This document shows positions 9,272-37,449 of a DNA stretch of 37,449 bases, one piece after another. The DNA is taken from positions 1 through 37,449 of IMG/VR virus record IMGVR_UViG_3300035703_000216, one strand, 5' to 3'. Positions within the stretch are counted from its first letter, which is position 1. Every line of letters starts with the position of its first letter. The position numbers and the translations under genes are program-made. Source of the DNA: a virus. The notes under the pieces are model-generated. The model was not told the origin of the DNA. It made no database searches and worked only from the letters and a program-made list of their open reading frames with translations.

Positions 9272-9531
9272 GTATTGATATGTGGATTGGCCTTGGGGTA
9301 GGCCTGGTGCCGTCGAGCATTACCATTCTGGGCTTCTTCATGGGGCACAATAGCCGGATCCATGTGCTGGAAACCCAGATCATTACCCTGAATCAGCGAA
9401 TCGATCAGGAGTCGAGCGACCGGAAGGAGCTCAGTAAGGCACTCACCTCGCTGAGCAACTCCATCAGCAACCTGGAAGGCTATCTCGAAAAGTTGAACAC
9501 CAGAAAAGCCCGAGCCCATGCCGTCTCTTAA
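9268..9531 (+). CDS. Small membrane-anchored coiled-coil protein (lysis group)
   Basis: An 87-aa protein with one N-terminal membrane segment at about residues 5-26 (IGLGVGLVPSSITILGFFMG) and a heptad-patterned tail from about residue 30 (I-H-V-L-E-T-Q-I-I-T-L-N-Q-R-I). Such a one-membrane-span plus coiled-coil layout occurs in phage lysis accessory and hemolysin XhlA-like proteins. It starts in the stop codon of the DUF6712-like gene and overlaps the next gene by 14 bp. A holin or holin-partner role is plausible but not shown. Confidence 0.7.
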   Translation: MSIDMWIGLGVGLVPSSITILGFFMGHNSRIHVLETQIITLNQRIDQESSDRKELSKALTSLSNSISNLEGYLEKLNTRKARAHAVS

Positions 9532-10150
9532 GCAGATTGGGTTTGGCCTGGTTACCATACTGGTACTTTTCTTCGGAATGCTAATTCGGAATTGGTACAG
9601 CGCAAAGCTCCGGGCGGCCAAGCAAGAAACCGCCGCCGTTGTTTCCTTCCACCAGTCCGAACTAAAGCGGGAAACCGGCAAACAGGGCCAGCAACTGGCC
9701 ACCCAGCCAAAGGTGGAAGTCGGGAAAAACACATTCCGGAATCTGACCGAAAAGCGCATCCGGGCAATGGAGAAAGAGTCGGGGCTGGACATGGGCAACG
9801 TCAGCACGCTAACGGAGACAACCGTAACAACGCAGCGGGAAATCAAAGCCCCGCTCACAACCGATACGCTGAACGGCAAAACCGGAGCCACCGACTCTTT
9901 CCCCATCCTGGTGCGCCGGTTCCACATCCGGACCCGGTTTGGTACCATGGCTGGGCAAATAAGGGGCGACAGCATCACGATTCGCGACAGTGTCGCAAAT
10001 CCCATAACCCTACTCGAAACCCGGCCAAAGTGGAAACTGCGCCACCTATGGCCTTGGAACTGGGGCACACGAAAGCGGGAGGTTAAGCTCCTGATCCATA
10101 ACCCGGATTCAAGAATCGATACGCTAACCAATATCTCAGTAATACCATGA
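9518..10150 (+). CDS. Rz-like inner-membrane protein (DUF6549-type)
   Basis: The 210-aa product has an N-terminal membrane anchor (residues about 6-22, IGFGVTI-type hydrophobic run GLVTILVLFFGML) followed by a long charged region, likely in the periplasm. The C-terminal sequence R-E-V-K-L-L-I-H-N-P-D-S-R-I-D-T-L-T-N-I matches the N-P-N-T-x-I ending of Bacteroidetes phage proteins annotated as DUF6549, which occupy the spanin position. It would help disrupt the outer membrane during lysis. It is flanked by other membrane proteins and shares ATGA with the next gene. Confidence 0.68.
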   Translation: MPSLKQIGFGLVTILVLFFGMLIRNWYSAKLRAAKQETAAVVSFHQSELKRETGKQGQQLATQPKVEVGKNTFRNLTEKRIRAMEKESGLDMGNVSTLTETTVTTQREIKAPLTTDTLNGKTGATDSFPILVRRFHIRTRFGTMAGQIRGDSITIRDSVANPITLLETRPKWKLRHLWPWNWGTRKREVKLLIHNPDSRIDTLTNISVIP

Positions 10151-10488
10151 AAAAATTCCTCGCAAAGTTTAACGAACTTCTTTTCTCACCTATTGCCATC
10201 CTGGTTTTTGGTTTGGCTTACTACGGAGTTTATAAATACTTCGGTCCCGAAGCCGGGCTTATCCCGCCTGGTTACTTTACCAATGTGCTTGCAGGTGCAG
10301 CCATCTTCTACATCGCTGGGTTTATGTCCACGTTTGCAATTTGGATAACGTTCCGCGAGTTATACCTGATTCTTTTTGACCCAGAAAAAATAGAGGGTGT
10401 AGTTTATGAATACCAAAAAACACTTGCCACATGCGTGTACTTTGCTTTCTATGCCTTGTCTATCTGGGCATTAACCTCCATGCTGTAG
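10147..10488 (+). CDS. Multi-span membrane protein, holin candidate
   Basis: A 113-aa protein with three likely membrane spans: FSPIAILVFGLAYYGVYKYF, VLAGAAIFYIAGFMSTFAIW and ATCVYFAFYALSIWALTSML. It lies directly upstream of, and overlaps by 58 bp, the CHAP endolysin gene, which is the usual place for a holin. No family match was recognised, so holin is a positional call. Confidence 0.7.
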   Translation: MKKFLAKFNELLFSPIAILVFGLAYYGVYKYFGPEAGLIPPGYFTNVLAGAAIFYIAGFMSTFAIWITFRELYLILFDPEKIEGVVYEYQKTLATCVYFAFYALSIWALTSML

Positions 10489-10946
10489 CCGATGCCCCCG
10501 TCTGCGTTCTCAAAGAAGCCCGCTCGCTTATTGGCGTGCGAGAAACCCCTGGCCGAAACAACCGAGGCCCAGAAGTGGACCGAATCGTTACCTACGCGGC
10601 TGGGACAACTCGCTGGCTCGGTACTGCCTGGTGCGGGTGGTTCGCTACGTATTGCCATCGTAGGTGCGGGCAACCATTCGCCGGAGGTATGGCAGCGGCA
10701 TGGTTTACGCGGGCTCGGCTTATTGCCAGCGATAGATCCAGGCCTGGTGATGTCTTCTCCGTCTGGAACAAGTACATCAAACGAATCGGCCATGTCGGAA
10801 TCGTCGAACAGGTTCTGCCCTCCGGGAAGTTCATTGTTACCATTGAAGGCAATACCAACGGCCGAGGAAGCCGGGACGGTGGAGGAGTCTGCCGATTGAC
10901 CCGCCCGATCAAACAAATTCACTCATTCGCCCGCTGGGCTCAGTAA
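10431..10946 (+). CDS. CHAP-domain endolysin with signal peptide
   Basis: A 171-aa peptidoglycan hydrolase. Residues 1-22 form a signal peptide (hydrophobic MRVLCFLCLVYLGI). The CHAP core carries the catalytic Cys in TAWCGWFATYCHRRCG, the His in RIGHVGIVEQ and the polar third residue in VTIEGNTNG. It cleaves amide bonds in peptidoglycan stem peptides or between sugar and peptide. A signal peptide suggests export through Sec, with the membrane proteins around it triggering or assisting lysis. It is embedded in the head-tail gene run instead of forming a distal lysis cassette. Confidence 0.88.
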   Translation: MRVLCFLCLVYLGINLHAVADAPVCVLKEARSLIGVRETPGRNNRGPEVDRIVTYAAGTTRWLGTAWCGWFATYCHRRCGQPFAGGMAAAWFTRARLIASDRSRPGDVFSVWNKYIKRIGHVGIVEQVLPSGKFIVTIEGNTNGRGSRDGGGVCRLTRPIKQIHSFARWAQ

Positions 10947-15976: not shown

Positions 15977-16673
15977 GAAGATAGCCTCACTTTTTGGCCG
16001 AACTGGTTCGGTTCAATACGCCGACCTCAAGGCTTGGTTCGATGCCTCATTGCTCAGAGACGAAGCATCTGGAAGCGGAACGCCTGGGCCAACCGGGCCA
16101 GCAGGGCCAGCGGGACCGACAGGCCCGGCAGGACCAACCGGACCAACCGGACCAACAGGACCAACCGGACCGACCGGCCCCGCAGGCCCAGCCGGAACCG
16201 ATGCCGGCACAGCCGGAAAGTACCTGGCCAATACTACGCAGAGTATCCTTACGGGCACAGTATCAAATACCCGCCTGAGTTCCCTACTTATCCCGGCCAA
16301 TACCTTCACCACCGGGAGCCTATTCGATTTTCTGGTGCGAACAAGACGAAACGGTGCAGGCTCTGTTTATACCATTCGGGTGTACATCAACACCTCCGAC
16401 AGCATCTCCGGCGCTACCCTTCTGGCAACTCTAAGCATCGGAACTGGGGCCTCGGGCGGGCAGCTTACCCGTACCCTGGTGGTTATTGGCAGCACCAATA
16501 CGCAGCTCAACTTTAGTGCGTCCACTTCTGCCCTTACCGATGTGGCCACCTTCTCCGGAGGTTCGGTAAACATCAACTGGGCCGCCGATCAGTACCTTAT
16601 CCTGGCCATCCAGCCGGCCAACACAACCGAGATACACACCTCGCACTTTATTTCCATTCACCCCAGAAATTAA
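15963..16673 (+). CDS. Collagen-like tail fibre/head domain protein
   Basis: A 236-aa protein in three parts: a short basic N-terminus (1-38), fourteen uninterrupted Gly-X-Y triplets, mostly GPT and GPA, at residues 39-80, and a beta-rich C-terminal domain (about 90-236) full of Ser/Thr, resembling a trimeric jelly-roll head. Collagen-like triplets form trimeric rods in phage fibres. The gene follows the tail-tip gene, so it is likely a receptor-binding or decorative fibre. The repeat array may vary in number between isolates. Confidence 0.82.
16077..16202 (+). repeat. 9-bp-period tandem repeat coding Gly-X-Y triplets
   Basis: Fourteen Gly-X-Y codon triplets, built on the unit GGACCAACC and close variants, run through this interval. 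Such DNA is prone to slippage, so length changes in the fibre stalk are expected. Confidence 0.85.
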
Positions 16674-16679
16674 CATGCC

Positions 16680-16919
16680 ATGGCCATTATCATTAAAGAT
16701 GGGGCGCAAGTCCTTTTTGAAGATCTATACTACTCCGTAGCCTGGTGGGAGAGCCTCGGGCCCGGCATTATACACCTGTGCCTCGAAGGCAATGGTCAAC
16801 AGATTATCCAATGCTACAAGGCAGGTGAGACCACGGTAAACGAAACCAACTGCAGCACGGTAGAAGAAATACTGGCCGCCGTAGGCAACCCGCCGCATAA
16901 GCCAATTCCAGTTAATTAA
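16680..16919 (+). CDS. Small hypothetical protein after the fibre
   Basis: A 79-aa soluble protein (IIIKDGAQVLFEDLYYSVAW opening, three Cys). It follows the fibre by 6 bp and ends immediately before the moron gene. No family was recognised; a small tail or fibre accessory role is possible. Confidence 0.6.
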   Translation: MAIIIKDGAQVLFEDLYYSVAWWESLGPGIIHLCLEGNGQQIIQCYKAGETTVNETNCSTVEEILAAVGNPPHKPIPVN

Positions 16920-29104: not shown

Positions 29105-29336
29105 TCCAAAGAACTATCCAGCCAACTGGAAAACCGAGATCCGGCCCAGTATCCTAAGAAGGGCAGAAAATAAGTGCGAAGAGTGCGGGGTGGCTAATGG
29201 CTCCCCGCTTCCATCGGGCAAGTTCAGTGTCGTGCTTACTGTGCACCACATAGACGGAAAGCTGGTAGATCACTCAGAGGGCAATCTGATTGCTCTCTGT
29301 CAAAAGTGCCACCTCGATAAACACAGGAACCGATGA
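29094..29336 (+). CDS. Small HNH endonuclease
   Basis: An 80-aa protein with the full HNH layout: C28-x2-C31, the HH pair at 51-52 with HHIDG, N64 in EGNLIALC, and C69-x2-C72 with H73 and H77. The two Cys pairs bind structural zinc, and H/N/H act on DNA. I chose ATG 29094, since longer in-frame extensions upstream overlap another gene and add no domain. Small stand-alone HNH enzymes often act in packaging or recombination, but this one is in the early block. Confidence 0.82.
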   Translation: MPFNPKNYPANWKTEIRPSILRRAENKCEECGVANGSPLPSGKFSVVLTVHHIDGKLVDHSEGNLIALCQKCHLDKHRNR

Positions 29337-29713
29337 GCCAACTATCCCTCGACTTCCGAAGCCCAGACGATATGCTGGTAAGTATCATTTTCCAGTCTAA
29401 GAATGGCATCCTGGAAGTACTTCATAAGGTAGTAATTCAGTTTCAGGTACATAAGCCTGGCTATCCACCAGCTTGTGCCTTTACGGGAATACCAGAAAAC
29501 TGGTTCCGGATTTTTGGCTACCAATCCATTCAGGAAGCCATTCCCGGCCTCGCTTCATCCAGCCGAATGCAGGTCGAGTGCCGGTATTCGCCCAAACAAT
29601 CGGGCATCGAGATTTTCCATGTCTTACATGCCTGGGCAAAGGCCAGCGGCTACCGAATAGAGCCAGCAGCGGGCACCCTCCGTCAATACAATTTAATCGG
29701 TTTAACCCCATGA
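29333..29713 (+). CDS. Hypothetical early protein
   Basis: A 126-aa alpha/beta protein without recognised motifs (central PGYPPACAFTGIPENWFRIF). It overlaps the HNH stop (ATGA) and the ASCH start (ATGA) by 4 bp each. Confidence 0.62.
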   Translation: MSQLSLDFRSPDDMLVSIIFQSKNGILEVLHKVVIQFQVHKPGYPPACAFTGIPENWFRIFGYQSIQEAIPGLASSSRMQVECRYSPKQSGIEIFHVLHAWAKASGYRIEPAAGTLRQYNLIGLTP

Positions 29714-30345
29714 AATTCATTCCAATCTTATTCAGCACGGCCATGGTGCAAGCTATTCTCGATGGCCGCAAAACCCAGACCCGCAGGCTGATAAAGCAAG
29801 CAGTGGCCTGGGATCCGGTTTGGAGACCTACCGCAATTCAGGAACAGCACCCTGATGGGATACCGCGATTTGTAATGCGTGCAGGGCATCAATATTCTTT
29901 GCCTTGGTTCAAATGCCCATACGGCCAGCCCGGAGATATTCTCTGGGTAAGGGAAACGTGGGCACCTGCACTTGGCAAATACGCTTACAAGGCAGACTAT
30001 TCCGAAGCGGTTTTGTCGGAGGAAAGAAACAAAGGTTTGTGGAAACCATCCATTCACATGCCGAAGGATGCCTGCCGTACCTGGCTTCGGGTAAAGTCGG
30101 TAAGGGTGGATCCGCTTAAGGGAATCTCAGAAGCAGATGCTATCGCTGAGGGCATCGAAGTTCACCAACGGGGAGGTATTACCTGGTACAACGACTATCT
30201 AATCCCTGGCTCCCCCTGCGACAAAGCATATCAAAGCTTCCGCACGTTGTGGTGTTCTATCAACGGGTTTGAATCCTGGTCCTCAAACCCATGGGTATGG
30301 GTTGTAGAGTTCGAAAAGTTGGATGGTAAACCGGAAGGATTCTGA
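29710..30345 (+). CDS. ASCH-domain (PUA-like) phage protein
   Basis: A 211-aa protein with the ASCH opening FIPILFSTAMVQAILDGRKT followed by QTRR, the PGDILWVRETWAP core, and WLRVKSVRVDPLKGISEADA. ASCH domains have a PUA-like fold and bind RNA or modified nucleobases; phage members are frequent and mostly uncharacterised. ATG 29710 overlaps the upstream stop; the longer frame from 29473 runs through another gene and is not used. A reader or processor of modified DNA or RNA is possible, given the ParB-glycosyltransferase cassette, but this is inference. Confidence 0.84.
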   Translation: MKFIPILFSTAMVQAILDGRKTQTRRLIKQAVAWDPVWRPTAIQEQHPDGIPRFVMRAGHQYSLPWFKCPYGQPGDILWVRETWAPALGKYAYKADYSEAVLSEERNKGLWKPSIHMPKDACRTWLRVKSVRVDPLKGISEADAIAEGIEVHQRGGITWYNDYLIPGSPCDKAYQSFRTLWCSINGFESWSSNPWVWVVEFEKLDGKPEGF

Positions 30346-30632: not shown

Positions 30633-30968
30633 ATGAGAATTTTCATCGGATTGCTTCTCGGCCTGGCGTTCTGCCTCTCTGTGCCCTCCTTCGCAACCTC
30701 CCCATTGCCAGACGGCGACCGCCTTGTGGTGGTAGATCACCAGGATGTTGACCTTATTGCCGACATCCTCCAGCTGGCCAGTGTGCAGTACCAGTACCAG
30801 GCTGGGCGTGGTGTAGACTTTGTGCCGGTCTGCATCTACGGGAGTTACCACTTCGACACCGCCACTACCTGGGCGCCGGAGTTTGGCTCAGTACGAATGG
30901 CCCTGCAATACACGGGGCACCAGGCCAAGGTGTACCGAGGCGAAAGAGCTTACCTCCTTAAAATATAG
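30633..30968 (+). CDS. Small secreted protein between twin terminators
   Basis: A 111-aa protein with a signal peptide (IFIGLLLGLAFCLSVPSFA, residues 3-21). The mature part is beta-rich with many Tyr/Gln. ATG 30633 is chosen because it begins the signal peptide; the in-frame ATG at 30567 would add a polar leader. It has a terminator on each side with almost identical stems, so it is an independent accessory unit, probably expressed in its own right. Function is unknown. Confidence 0.7.
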   Translation: MRIFIGLLLGLAFCLSVPSFATSPLPDGDRLVVVDHQDVDLIADILQLASVQYQYQAGRGVDFVPVCIYGSYHFDTATTWAPEFGSVRMALQYTGHQAKVYRGERAYLLKI

Positions 30969-31005
30969 GTTAAGGGTAAAGCCACTCATCGTTTCACGCA
31001 AGAAG

Positions 31006-31034
31006 AAGCCCGGACTGTAAATCCGGGCTTTTTT
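31006..31034 (+). terminator. Rho-independent terminator after the small secreted protein
   Basis: A 9-bp stem (AAGCCCGGA at 31006-31014, TCCGGGCTT at 31022-31030), 7-nt loop and T tract to 31034. The arms are identical to those at 30521-30544. Confidence 0.92.
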
Positions 31035-31090: not shown

Positions 31091-32314
31091 ATGCTAATCT
31101 TCGACTGGCTCATCTTCCTTTGGAAGAAACTCCGTGGCATTACCACGAACCCCTACATTCCCGAAAGCTGCGAAATAGAGGCCCCCGCCGCCCCCAAGCC
31201 GGCGCTCCGTATTTCGAGCGAACCAGACTTTTGGGATCCCAACTACCGAAGCTACCGCATCGTGCGGCTGTACGTTGAGGTGGACTCCATCTATGCCGGG
31301 TTCTACGGAACCCAGACCGAAAGCGTAGTGCGAGACCGATGGGCCAGGATCAGCCGGAATGCCGAGCGACTGTACGGAATCCGGTTCGAGATCCAGACGC
31401 TTAAGATCAACACCACGCCCGACAGCCTGGAGAGCATCACCAGCGCCGGCACATTGCTTGCCACCTGGGCCAACCAGGCCAGCATTAACACCAGGCCGGA
31501 GCCGTTCAAGTTCCGGATCTCTGGCCGAAATATGGGAGGCATTGCTTACATCTCTCGCGGAGCGGTAACCAGTGCGAAGTACGCAGTGTGTGGATTCGGC
31601 CGCGTATCGGCCGGGACCGACGAGCGCCCCGGCCTGGACGAGTACGGATGGCTACACGAGGTAATGCATAACCTGGGCATCTCTCACTCACACAATTGCT
31701 GCGCCTGGCAGGATAAAGCAGGCACTCCCCTGGGCAAGCTGGACGACTGTTTTGCGGGCGAACGAACCTGCACCCCTGTGCCCAGCAATTGCAGCACCAG
31801 CCAGCGCCGTATGGAAGGCGGCATAAACAGCTACGCCCATATCTGGGGAACCCAAAACTGGTGGATGCATCCCAGCTGCGTAGCCACATTGCACCGGGCG
31901 CTCTTCAACTCCGATCTGCCGAGCTATACGCCAGCCGCAGCCGAAGGGCCAATCCCTTACGGCATCCAACCCCTGGGCACCACATTCGCGGGAGTTGCTT
32001 CCAACGTAATGGACGGCAGCGGAGATACACGCTGGGTAACCAGCGGCCCGGCCTCGATCCGTTGCATGTTTAGCGCTACCCGGCGGGTGCGCCGCATCCG
32101 GATACTTACCGGCTTCTTCTCCGGTGGCGTATGGAGTAGCCCGGTAGCGAGCCTGAGAGTGCAGACCACAACAGGAGAAACGCTCTTTACCATTACCGGC
32201 AACACACGCACAGAGCTGGAACTCACGCTCGACAGGGAGCTAAATGGCCTGGTATTCTGGTTCGACGATTTGCAATACAACCGGATCCGGGAGATCCAGC
32301 CAATCGGGCTATAA
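31091..32314 (+). CDS. Metzincin-type zinc metalloprotease with discoidin-like C-terminus
   Basis: A 407-aa protein. The zinc motif HEVMHNLGISHSH gives His189, Glu190, His193, Gly196 and His199, the full HExxHxxGxxH of metzincins. A Met at 241 (RRMEGG) could be the Met-turn. About eight Cys at 174-265 suggest disulfides. From about residue 290 to the end, a beta-rich region (SNVMDGSGDTRWVTSGPAS, then RRVRRIRILTGFFSGG) resembles an F5/8 type C (discoidin) carbohydrate-binding domain. The first 12 residues are hydrophobic (LIFDWLIFLWKKL), perhaps an anchor or poor signal. It stands alone between a terminator and the non-coding region. It could be a secreted enzyme for the host or a virion depolymerase. 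Confidence 0.83.
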   Translation: MLIFDWLIFLWKKLRGITTNPYIPESCEIEAPAAPKPALRISSEPDFWDPNYRSYRIVRLYVEVDSIYAGFYGTQTESVVRDRWARISRNAERLYGIRFEIQTLKINTTPDSLESITSAGTLLATWANQASINTRPEPFKFRISGRNMGGIAYISRGAVTSAKYAVCGFGRVSAGTDERPGLDEYGWLHEVMHNLGISHSHNCCAWQDKAGTPLGKLDDCFAGERTCTPVPSNCSTSQRRMEGGINSYAHIWGTQNWWMHPSCVATLHRALFNSDLPSYTPAAAEGPIPYGIQPLGTTFAGVASNVMDGSGDTRWVTSGPASIRCMFSATRRVRRIRILTGFFSGGVWSSPVASLRVQTTTGETLFTITGNTRTELELTLDRELNGLVFWFDDLQYNRIREIQPIGL

Positions 32315-32725
32315 CACCGTGCTATCAAAAAGGCGCTGAAAATGCCACGGCCAGGGCCACACTACATGCCGCAACCGTACAGGCGATTCTCAGCGCCTTC
32401 GTTTCGCCCTTCCCCGCACCCCAACCCATTGAGGCCTTCGGTTTTTACCCTTTTACGTTTTATGATTCTACCTATATATAAAAAGTTAGGTCAAAAAGTG
32501 GAAGAGGAATTCGGCGTTCGTCAATCCGGGGTTGGTAGTATCGGTTTGATTTCGGCCCCAACCCGGATTTCCTCACTTAGTGAGTCAATAAAATTAAAGC
32601 AGTGGTGTAGCCGTCCTACTTATACTACGGATCCTACATATCTTTTTTTCTTTATAAGATTTTTCAGAAATATATAATAATGAGGGGCCTAGGGGTTTTG
32701 GTCGGCAAGGGAGGCAACTAAAACC

Positions 32726-32755
32726 GTGTAGTATGGTGTAGGATGGTGTAGTATC
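32726..32755 (+). repeat. Three tandem 10-bp iteron-like repeats
   Basis: GTGTAGTATG, GTGTAGGATG and GTGTAGTATC follow one another without spacing. More TGTAG(T/G)A copies occur at 32791, 32813, 32879 and 32887 and, inverted, at 32632 and 32836. The 10-bp period places every copy on the same face of the helix. Confidence 0.85.
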
Positions 32756-32812
32756 GGCAGGGCTTGGATCTGGGAGCGACCGGATCCGGATGTAGTACGG
32801 TTGGCGGAAAAA

Positions 32813-32842
32813 TGTAGTACGAACCGGGAAACCCGTACTACA
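32813..32842. repeat. Hairpin-forming inverted repeat within the iteron cluster
   Basis: TGTAGTACG (32813-32821) and CGTACTACA (32834-32842) are perfect 9-bp inverted arms with a 12-nt loop. They are built from the same motif as the tandem repeats. No T tract follows, so it is not a terminator. Confidence 0.75.
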
Positions 32843-32986
32843 CGCTAAACGGTTGGGCTTCATTTGGTTACGGTCATTTGTAGTATTGTAGGACGTGTAG
32901 GCCATTTTTTTAGCCACTACCTGAAATACATATACACCGCCCGCCTCAGAAAAAGCCCTGTCACTGGCAGTATAGGATTATACCTA

Positions 32987-33067
32987 TATTTTGTTCTCAT
33001 ATTGTCGCAACCCTAAAAAGTGCCTATACTCTTTAATTTCCTGTATTTTATTCTCATTTTGTCGCAA
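32987..33067 (+). repeat. Pair of 24-bp direct repeats upstream of the capsid operon
   Basis: Positions 32987-33010 and 33044-33067 match at 22 of 24 bases; both end in TTGTCGCAA and start with TATTTT. The copies are 57 bp apart and end 32 bp before the first capsid-operon start codon. They are probable binding sites for a late-gene activator or form the promoter itself. A -7-like TATTTTTC lies at 33088-33095. Confidence 0.6.
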
Positions 33068-33099
33068 TAAATTCGGGCAGAATTTTGTATTTTTCCGAT

Positions 33100-33576
33100 A
33101 TGAAGCGACACGTAATCTACGTTCGGCCATACGTGAAGAGATTCATTCAAAATGAGCTGGACGAAAATGGGGTGTACTACGTCCCCAACCGACTGGTGGT
33201 AACAAAGCGGAACACTGCCGCCGTTCGTAGCATCAAGGAACCGGGCAAGGTAAACTCTGAGCGCCTGGTGGTGGAGGCTGCCGTGAGTTCGGAGTATGTG
33301 ATCTACTCCCTCCAGGCCCAGCTTGCGGCCGATTTCCGGAAGCAAATGTTCTCCAGTATGGCTATGGCTGTGCAAATGGGGCGGCCAGCTCTGGAGGCTT
33401 GCAAAAAGTTTCTGGCGCTGTATGGAATAGAACCAGGCGAATACGACTGGGCCAGCGCCTACCGTACCTGGGAGCGCAAGAAAGAAGAGTATCTGCGCCC
33501 GCAAGAGGTAGTCCGCATCCGGAAACGGAAAACTGCGCCTGTTTTACAATCTCGCCAACTCTCGATTTTCACATGA
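33100..33576 (+). CDS. Hypothetical protein at the head of the capsid operon
   Basis: A 158-aa basic protein (MKRHVIYVRPYVKRFIQNEL, RKKEEYLRPQEVVRIRKRKT). It has no signal or membrane segment. ATG 33100 is preferred to an in-frame TTG at 33085, which overlaps the likely promoter. Basic charge and position suggest DNA or RNA binding or late regulation; the family was not recognised. It overlaps the next gene by ATGA. Confidence 0.7.
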   Translation: MKRHVIYVRPYVKRFIQNELDENGVYYVPNRLVVTKRNTAAVRSIKEPGKVNSERLVVEAAVSSEYVIYSLQAQLAADFRKQMFSSMAMAVQMGRPALEACKKFLALYGIEPGEYDWASAYRTWERKKEEYLRPQEVVRIRKRKTAPVLQSRQLSIFT

Positions 33577-34136: not shown

Positions 34137-35591
34137 ATGGATGTTTGTACCATGCCAAACCGCAAGACACATCCATTTGCTAACGCCCGAGGCCACGTAG
34201 AGATACGGGGAGCTGCAGGCGTAACAGCCAACCAGGTAGATGTAGAAGCTGGCATCCTTCGCGATGTTGTGCTTTGCCAGGCTATGCAACCTCGGGGCAT
34301 GGCGGGCGAGTATGTGGTTTACGATTCGGATGGATGGGAATTCTGGGAGCGGATGCGCCTGCGGGTAGAAACCCCTCAGGAGTTTATTGATCGGCTGGCC
34401 GAAATTGGCCAAACCCAATTCGAAAAGCAGGGCATGCAGGCCCGGTTCGGGCACCCGAACGAGTGCAACCCCGCTTTGGGATCTGCAGCCGGGCGGATCC
34501 GGAATTTCCGCGTTCGTGGCGATCAGGTAATCGGCGACATTACCTTGCTCAAGGCGGCCAGCAATGCACCAGGGAAAGGAGACCTCCGCAGCTACATTAT
34601 GGATATGGCGCTCGAGGCACCGGATGCGCTGATGATGTCCATCGTGTTTATGCCCGATGATATGTACTTCATCAATGCAGATGGAGAGCGTGAGGTATTC
34701 GACGGAAGTGAGGAACAGCTTGCCTACTTCGAGACCCTTCCAGAAGGCGACCGGGTGTTATACGAGACTTGCCGCGACTGGCTTTTTACCGATTTCGTAG
34801 ACCAGGGCGCCAACACCCTGGATATGTTCCGTGGTACTTCGGGCGAGATGGCCGCCCGGGTAACCCAGTTTTTGGACGAAAACCCGGAAGTAATGCGGGC
34901 AATCGTGCAAGACCCTGCCATCATCGGCCAGTTTATCGAGCGCTACAACCGCAGCGCTAAGGCTCTCAAATCCAGCAACTTTCTTACCATGAATAAAAAT
35001 CAGAAGGAAACCCGAGATATTCTGGGTGGCTTTAAGAAAAGCTTCGCCCGGCTTATGCAAAGCCTGGCGGGTAGCGAAGGCAATGATCCGGATAACCAAG
35101 ACCGCTCCATTGAAACCACCACCTCAGAAGGTGTGGCTATTACCATCGAAACCGATGCCGAAGTTCCGGCAGAAGGCGACCAGGTGTACATCGCAGGCGG
35201 TACCGAAGTGCCCCCAGCTGGCGACCACGTGCTTACCGGTAACCTGGAAGGCTACACCATCACCACGGACGATGCCGGTATCATTACCGCCGTTCAGGCA
35301 CCAGCAGCCGACCCGGCAGCCGATCCAGCCATGAGCAGCATCGATACCGAAGAAGGCACCCGCCAGATTGCCGAACTCGCCCGCAGTGTGCAGTCGGTAG
35401 TAAGTGCCGTGGAGAAGCTCTCCCTGCGCATGGCTTCCATGGATGCCAAGCTCCGCAAAATTGAAGAAGCGCCTTTCGGCCAGCGCATTTTCTCTGACTC
35501 GGGAAACCGGGTGAGTGACCGCAGCAAGAAGCGCAGCACAGAAAACAACCCTACCGAAGAGTCCATCCGCAAGGCATTGGGCGATAAGTAG
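34137..35591 (+). CDS. Prohead protease fused to scaffold
   Basis: A 484-aa protein. The N-terminal part (about 1-250) carries a likely Ser protease pair of the S78/U35 prohead-protease type: His106 in RFGHPNECN and Ser168 in ALMMSIVFMP. The C-terminal part, from about residue 285, is acidic, low-complexity and ends in a coiled coil (LARSVQSVVSAVEKLSLRMA), as in scaffolds that are cleaved after capsid assembly. An internal ATG at 34989 (MNKNQKETRD) could make the scaffold alone, as in phage lambda gpC/Nu3. ATG 34152 is an alternative overall start. Confidence 0.8.
   Translation: MDVCTMPNRKTHPFANARGHVEIRGAAGVTANQVDVEAGILRDVVLCQAMQPRGMAGEYVVYDSDGWEFWERMRLRVETPQEFIDRLAEIGQTQFEKQGMQARFGHPNECNPALGSAAGRIRNFRVRGDQVIGDITLLKAASNAPGKGDLRSYIMDMALEAPDALMMSIVFMPDDMYFINADGEREVFDGSEEQLAYFETLPEGDRVLYETCRDWLFTDFVDQGANTLDMFRGTSGEMAARVTQFLDENPEVMRAIVQDPAIIGQFIERYNRSAKALKSSNFLTMNKNQKETRDILGGFKKSFARLMQSLAGSEGNDPDNQDRSIETTTSEGVAITIETDAEVPAEGDQVYIAGGTEVPPAGDHVLTGNLEGYTITTDDAGIITAVQAPAADPAADPAMSSIDTEEGTRQIAELARSVQSVVSAVEKLSLRMASMDAKLRKIEEAPFGQRIFSDSGNRVSDRSKKRSTENNPTEESIRKALGDK
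34989..35591 (+). CDS. Possible nested scaffold product (internal start)
   Basis: The in-frame ATG at 34989 would give a 200-aa protein beginning MNKNQKETRDILGGFKKS, exactly where the protease domain ends and the scaffold begins. The start is in an A-rich context, as usual for genes here. It is inferred from domain layout and lambda precedent only. Confidence 0.4.
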   Translation: MNKNQKETRDILGGFKKSFARLMQSLAGSEGNDPDNQDRSIETTTSEGVAITIETDAEVPAEGDQVYIAGGTEVPPAGDHVLTGNLEGYTITTDDAGIITAVQAPAADPAADPAMSSIDTEEGTRQIAELARSVQSVVSAVEKLSLRMASMDAKLRKIEEAPFGQRIFSDSGNRVSDRSKKRSTENNPTEESIRKALGDK

Positions 35592-37235: not shown

Positions 37236-37449
37236 ATGGAAGAGATCAAAAGCAGAGTCCTCGCCTGGTTAGAATCTGAGGCCAAGGACTACAACCAAGG
37301 CATCTTTCTTGCAAGCCAGGTCCTTACCAACAAAAACATGGTCTTCCGTTTGGCCAAGAAAGAAACGGTTGACAACCTCGATAAACTCGTTTACGAGCTC
37401 TCGGCATTTTATGGAGTAGAGTATAAGCCGCATGCTGAAGCCAGCCGTG
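37236..37449 (+). CDS. Coiled-coil phage protein, 5' part
   Basis: ATG 37236 opens MEEIKSRVLAWLESEAKDYN, and the frame continues without a break at position 3 of the window. This is the same gene as the one ending at 806. The start follows the 37196-37223 terminator by 12 bp, so transcription must read through the terminator or start very close to the gene. Confidence 0.85.
   Translation, partial: MEEIKSRVLAWLESEAKDYNQGIFLASQVLTNKNMVFRLAKKETVDNLDKLVYELSAFYGVEYKPHAEASR
37267..37449. repeat. Terminal direct repeat, right copy
   Basis: This is the second copy of the first 183 bases. It lies inside the 5' part of the coiled-coil gene that begins at 37236 and continues from position 3 onward at the left end. 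Confidence 0.97.

What the first reader, a model, noticed from the sequence alone, without database searches (positions are those of the whole stretch)
31091..32314. Phage-encoded metzincin protease with a discoidin-like domain
The HExxHxxGxxH zinc site, a plausible Met-turn, a Cys-rich middle and a C-terminal F5/8-type module make a secreted or surface protease with a carbohydrate-binding end. Such an enzyme is unusual in a 37-kb temperate phage. It stands as its own unit next to another secreted protein gene and the long regulatory region, which fits lysogenic conversion or virion-borne depolymerisation.
Basis: partly seen in the sequence, partly recalled or inferred. Interest (0 to 1): 0.7.

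Follow-up and report, generated by a model that had tools for sequence, protein, structure and literature searches.

The report
Phage accessory metzincin lacking Met-turn methionine
A phage of Bacteroidota-type bacteria carries, in an exchangeable accessory slot, a zinc protease of the adamalysin kind with a sugar-binding-like tail; its family has an asparagine where this class of enzymes normally has a methionine under the zinc.

Summary
The ORF is real (31091-32314, 407 aa) and is a reprolysin/adamalysin-type metzincin. Pfam PF13688 scores above cut-off (9e-8), all three zinc His and the Glu are present, and an AlphaFold2 model matches ADAM and snake-venom protease domains (TM-score to target up to 0.71). 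Fold matches and weak sequence hits support an F5/8-type C-terminal domain. Two parts of the finding fail. The Met-turn methionine is replaced by Asn246 in this protein and its close phage relatives, while every other reprolysin aligned has Met. The N-terminus has no convincing signal peptide, although sister proteins look like lipoproteins. The gene is accessory: in related phages the same slot is empty, holds a different reprolysin, or holds another gene. Ten phages with a closer terminase show no reprolysin catalytic domain, whereas a more distant one has a 74% identical copy; unrelated phages share only this gene. Purifying selection (dN/dS about 0.2) and DNA-level conservation together with the lysis cassette and tail fibre point to a host-surface role. 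Most likely it is an exchangeable envelope or egress protease; lysogenic conversion and a non-catalytic binding protein remain open. No relative was found in 50,697 annotated phages.

The parts
31091..32314 (+). Metzincin gene, 407 aa
   Evidence: ORF; Pfam PF13688 E=9.1e-8; relatives in phage contigs
31091..31249 (+). N-terminal 53 residues: no prodomain, no lipobox, no convincing signal peptide
   Evidence: Hydropathy and comparison with L002, L003, L006, L007, L026
31250..31936 (+). Adamalysin-type catalytic domain (residues about 54-282)
   Evidence: Model pLDDT mostly 80-96 over residues 51-170; Foldseek to ADAM and SVMP domains
31655..31687 (+). Zinc motif HEVMHNLGISH (residues 189-199)
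   Evidence: Invariant ligands in 20-sequence alignment
31826..31828 (+). Codon of Asn246, at the Met-turn position
   Evidence: Alignment: Met in 15 outside members, Asn in 5 of the window's group
31958..32311 (+). F5/8-type (discoidin-like) C-terminal domain, residues 290-407
31003..31033 (+). Terminator-like hairpin upstream of the gene
   Evidence: 12-nt arms, 92% complementary, 7-nt loop, T-run
32330..32399 (+). Structured inverted repeat downstream, shared only with L002
   Evidence: Fold z-scores -3.8 and -5.4

Best explanation
This is an exchangeable accessory gene of phages that probably infect Bacteroidota. Its product is an adamalysin-type metzincin without prodomain, joined to an F5/8-type binding domain. 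Shown by sequence or model: the fold, the intact zinc ligands and catalytic Glu, Asn in place of the Met-turn Met, purifying selection, patchy presence in one genomic slot, and sharing between otherwise unrelated phages. Inferred: the F5/8 domain tethers the protein to a cell-surface glycan and the protease cuts host-envelope or surface proteins late in infection or as cells open, helping virion release or clearing surface barriers. In sister phages it looks like an envelope lipoprotein. Here no export signal is visible, so it uses an unrecognised route or is released by lysis.
For: Family and fold. Purifying selection: dN/dS 0.23 and 0.10. Accessory slot; whole-contig absence in phages with closer terminases. 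Sharing with unrelated phages. DNA-level conservation grouped with the lysis cassette and tail fibre: CHAP endolysin. Sister proteins with lipobox. Functional precedent: Listeria Mtz-Tim sensitises cells to phage lysis (PMC8235301).
Against: No expression, localisation or activity data. Asn at the Met-turn may impair catalysis: PrtC M226N could not be isolated (PMC1266349). No signal peptide in window or L002. In this phage the lysis cassette lies elsewhere (9518-10946), so proximity to lysis genes holds only in some relatives.
Confidence: 0.45

Rival explanations
1. Lysogenic conversion: the protease is made from the prophage and modifies the host surface or its surroundings, giving superinfection exclusion or a nutritional benefit to the lysogen.
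For: The phage has an integrase and a repressor-like gene. The gene is patchy, exchangeable and bracketed by hairpins. A C10 protease sits on a prophage-like element of Bacteroides fragilis (PMC2873492).
Against: No promoter identified. The gene is on the strand of the lytic genes at the early/late border. No export signal in this protein.
Confidence: 0.25
2. Pseudoprotease: the loss of the Met-turn methionine made the domain a zinc-binding or protein-binding scaffold, and the protein works by binding through its metzincin and F5/8 domains.
For: Asn at the Met-turn in the whole group; Met to Asn in PrtC gave no isolable protein (PMC1266349).
Against: All zinc ligands and the catalytic Glu are kept under purifying selection, whereas known ADAM pseudopeptidases lose those residues and keep the Met (PMC11266112). 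MMP-2 tolerated Leu or Ser at this position (PMC1266349).
Confidence: 0.2
3. Virion-borne depolymerase: the protein is a particle component that digests surface material during entry.
For: F5/8-type domains occur in phage tail proteins (Foldseek hits). No signal peptide in window and L002.
Against: Absent from related phages that keep the structural genes. It lies outside the structural cluster. Sister proteins carry lipoprotein-like signals.
Confidence: 0.08

Closest known systems
Pfam PF13688 Reprolysin_5 (M12B-like bacterial metallopeptidases)
   Same: Catalytic fold, HExxHxxGxxH motif, Cys pattern
   Different: No prodomain; Asn instead of Met in the Met-turn; phage-borne
ADAM / snake-venom adamalysins (for example ADAM8 4dd8, trimerelysin 1wni)
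   Same: Predicted fold, TM-score to target 0.69-0.71
   Different: 14-18% identity; no disintegrin domain; Met-turn altered
F5/8 type C domain (PF00754)
   Same: C-terminal domain by fold search and collinear weak hits
   Different: Below Pfam cut-off; no match to the clear F5/8 domain of L047 by hhalign
Listeria phage-type Mtz-Tim pair (PMC8235301)
   Same: Phage-associated metzincin with an effect on the envelope and lysis
   Different: Gram-positive host, paired TIMP-like lipoprotein; no such partner seen here; sequence relation not tested
Bacteroides fragilis C10 protease on a prophage-like element (PMC2873492)
   Same: Protease gene carried by a prophage-like element in Bacteroidota
   Different: Unrelated cysteine protease family

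Membership tests
Metzincin clan | Extended zinc motif HExxHxxGxxH with catalytic Glu | tested here: met
   HEVMHNLGISH, invariant in alignment
Metzincin clan | Met-turn methionine below the zinc | tested here: not met
   Asn246 at the aligned position; Met in 15 of 15 outside members
Metzincin clan | Metzincin fold | tested here: met
   Foldseek to ADAM, ADAMTS and SVMP chains, E to 8e-10
Reprolysin/adamalysin (M12B-like) | Score above the Pfam cut-off | tested here: met
   33 bits against 27 for PF13688; L003 itself is below the cut-off, 22 bits
Reprolysin/adamalysin (M12B-like) | N-terminal prodomain | tested here: not met
   Only about 50 residues before the catalytic domain; present in L028, L035, L054
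F5/8 type C domain | Discoidin-like beta fold | tested here: met
   Model all-beta, pLDDT about 70-88 in parts; Foldseek to proteins named F5/8 type C
F5/8 type C domain | Score above the Pfam cut-off | tested here: not met
   13.2 bits against 28.2
Active peptidase | Zinc-dependent peptide cleavage | not testable with these tools
   Needs recombinant protein
Phage accessory gene (moron-like) | Present or absent at one site among related phages | tested here: met
   Slot empty in L067, L068, L069, L071, L072, L073; other gene in L076; reprolysins in L054, L075
Phage accessory gene (moron-like) | Own promoter and terminator | tested here: inconclusive
   Hairpins on both sides; no promoter shown

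The most novel reading that the evidence does not exclude
A phage-borne lineage of metzincins is catalytically active with a natural Asn in the Met-turn, showing that the 'invariant' methionine can be dispensed with, and serves as an exchangeable host-surface protease in Bacteroidota phages.
Probability: 0.4. Interest if true: 0.72.

Novelty: new variant of a known kind. Interest (0 to 1): 0.52.

Why it matters
The Met-turn methionine is described as invariant across metzincins (PMC1266349), and even pseudo-ADAMs usually keep it (PMC11266112). A natural lineage with a complete zinc motif but Asn at that position is a direct test of what the methionine does. Separately, reprolysins in an exchangeable slot of Bacteroidota-type phages, with none found in 50,697 annotated phages, point to an unstudied class of phage surface proteases.

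Tried and rejected
Met241 as the Met-turn residue: rejected, since L026 has both KRM and FMSYCH and L003 has Gln at 241. Essential virion protein: disfavoured by absence in related phages. Cys27 as a lipobox Cys: rejected, it has no lipobox around it and does not align with the L003 lipid Cys. A first pattern scan was mis-spaced and redone. The first AlphaFold2 model (5 sequences) had pLDDT 51 and was replaced by a 20-sequence run, pLDDT 72. Two scans of cellular genomes gave no relative, so host and cellular ancestor are not placed; those patterns were narrow, so more distant cellular relatives are not excluded. Rfam gave nothing in the region and there are no tRNAs. hhalign of the C-terminal domain against the L047 F5/8 domain was negative. 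Tallant 2010 on the Met-turn was not held.

Full report
OBSERVATION. The ORF 31091-32314 encodes 407 aa. Pfam Reprolysin_5 matches above cut-off (E=9.1e-8), and the pattern for HEVMHNLGISHSHNC occurs once in the window and never in 100 shuffles. There is no match in 50,697 annotated phage records or 72,556 plasmids. One IMG/VR contig (L002) carries a 74% identical protein at the same place in a syntenic phage.

RELATIVES. A pattern scan for the extended motif found a second group, about 41% identical (L003, L006/L015, L007, L008/L013, L010/L014). A looser scan gave many further reprolysin-like proteins in contigs classed as viral, some of which may be host-derived. In a maximum-likelihood tree of 23 catalytic domains the window, L002, L003, L006 and L007 form one group (100/98), with L026 next to it (100/100).

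MET-TURN. In the alignment of 20 catalytic domains the three zinc His, the Glu and a Ser-Tyr pair are invariant. The residue just before Ser-Tyr is Met in all 15 outside members (for example GTIMSYCH, and DFMSYCH in L026) and Asn in the five members of the window's group (GGINSYAH, AGINSYGH, GGWNSYAH). The literature calls this Met invariant in metzincins; Met to Asn in PrtC gave no isolable protein, whereas MMP-2 tolerated Leu or Ser (PMC1266349). ADAM pseudopeptidases typically keep the Met while losing zinc ligands or the Glu (PMC11266112), the reverse of this case.

STRUCTURE. AlphaFold2 with 20 sequences gave mean pLDDT 72, with most of residues 51-170 at 80-96 and low confidence around the Met-turn. 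Foldseek against the PDB returns adamalysins, ADAMs and ADAMTS (E down to 8e-10, TM-score to target up to 0.71); a profile search of PDB sequences agrees. The C-terminal domain matches viral proteins named F5/8 type C, has sub-threshold Pfam F5/8 hits, and is related to the C-terminal ends of L028/L048 (hhalign probability 91).

N-TERMINUS. L003, L006, L007 and L026 start with a hydrophobic segment and a lipobox-like Cys. L002 has none, and the window only a short mixed hydrophobic stretch. The large prodomain of L028, L035 and L054 is missing in the window group and in L026. The conserved Cys residues suggest an oxidising compartment (inference), so the export route of this protein is unresolved.

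AN ACCESSORY GENE. The gene lies between the early module (an ASCH-like gene, judged from sequence only; Pfam gave no hit) and a noncoding region followed by late genes. Using the downstream gene 34137-35591 as bait, I compared the slot in related phages. A different, prodomain-bearing reprolysin fills it in L054 and L075, and in G010 (found through its reprolysin, so a biased case). L066 holds what looks like the tail end of one at its contig edge. L067, L068, L069, L071, L072 and L073 have none, and L076 has another ORF with a signal-like start. L065, L070 and L074 begin past or near the slot and are uninformative. Ten phages whose terminase is closer to the window (57-68%) than that of L002 (54%) show no reprolysin catalytic domain in the held contig; some of these contigs are fragments, and one of the ten (L066) carries the truncated end just mentioned. 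The otherwise unrelated phages G002 and G003 share only the metzincin with the window, apart from a partial primase match in G003.

SELECTION AND COMPANY. dN/dS is 0.23 between window and L002 and 0.10 between L003 and L007. The four longest or strongest DNA-similarity blocks between window and L002 are the metzincin with its downstream hairpin (31169-32426), the lysis cassette with a CHAP endolysin (9686-10937), a tail-fibre stretch (16082-16858) and 29331-29797 (CHAP). That grouping suggests a role at the host surface, but it is correlative. The downstream hairpin folds better than shuffles (z -3.8 and -5.4) and was found only in these two phages.

MECHANISM. Most likely an exchangeable surface or egress protease tethered by its F5/8 domain. 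The Listeria Mtz-Tim system, where a phage-type metzincin sensitises the cell envelope to lysins (PMC8235301), is the nearest functional precedent. Lysogenic conversion and a non-catalytic binding role are serious rivals; a virion role is less likely. Activity, substrate, timing and localisation are not shown.

HOST. Terminase and portal are closest to phages of Polaribacter, Flavobacterium, Cellulophaga, Bacteroides and, for terminase, also Microcystis, all below 60% identity, so a Bacteroidota host is inferred, not shown.

Noticed in passing
1-183 and 37267-37449: The window ends overlap by 183 bp with one mismatch, so the record is probably a complete circular genome of about 37.27 kb although classed as linear.
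   Followed up: partly
32700-32950; L002:2280-2570; L073:8690-8830: The noncoding region before gene 33085-33576 holds short repeats that differ from phage to phage (TGTAGTA, GAGGTAGTTG with CAACTACCT, AGTTGGAA); possibly binding sites of a regulator, perhaps the adjacent gene product.
   Followed up: no
32983-33010 and 33040-33067: A 28-nt direct repeat, 89% identical, 57 bp apart, just upstream of gene 33085-33576.
   Followed up: no
29331-29797: 468 bp that are 90.6% identical to L002, far above the rest of the genome.
   Followed up: no
32330-32399: Structured inverted repeat after the metzincin, shared with L002 only, no Rfam match.
   Followed up: partly
30633-30968: Small ORF with a strongly hydrophobic signal-like N-terminus and no Pfam match; no counterpart in L002.
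   Followed up: partly
L026, L030, L035, L054, L066: These phage reprolysins end in a different, Cys-containing domain with related sequence in place of the F5/8 domain, so the accessory domain appears to be swapped between relatives.
   Followed up: no
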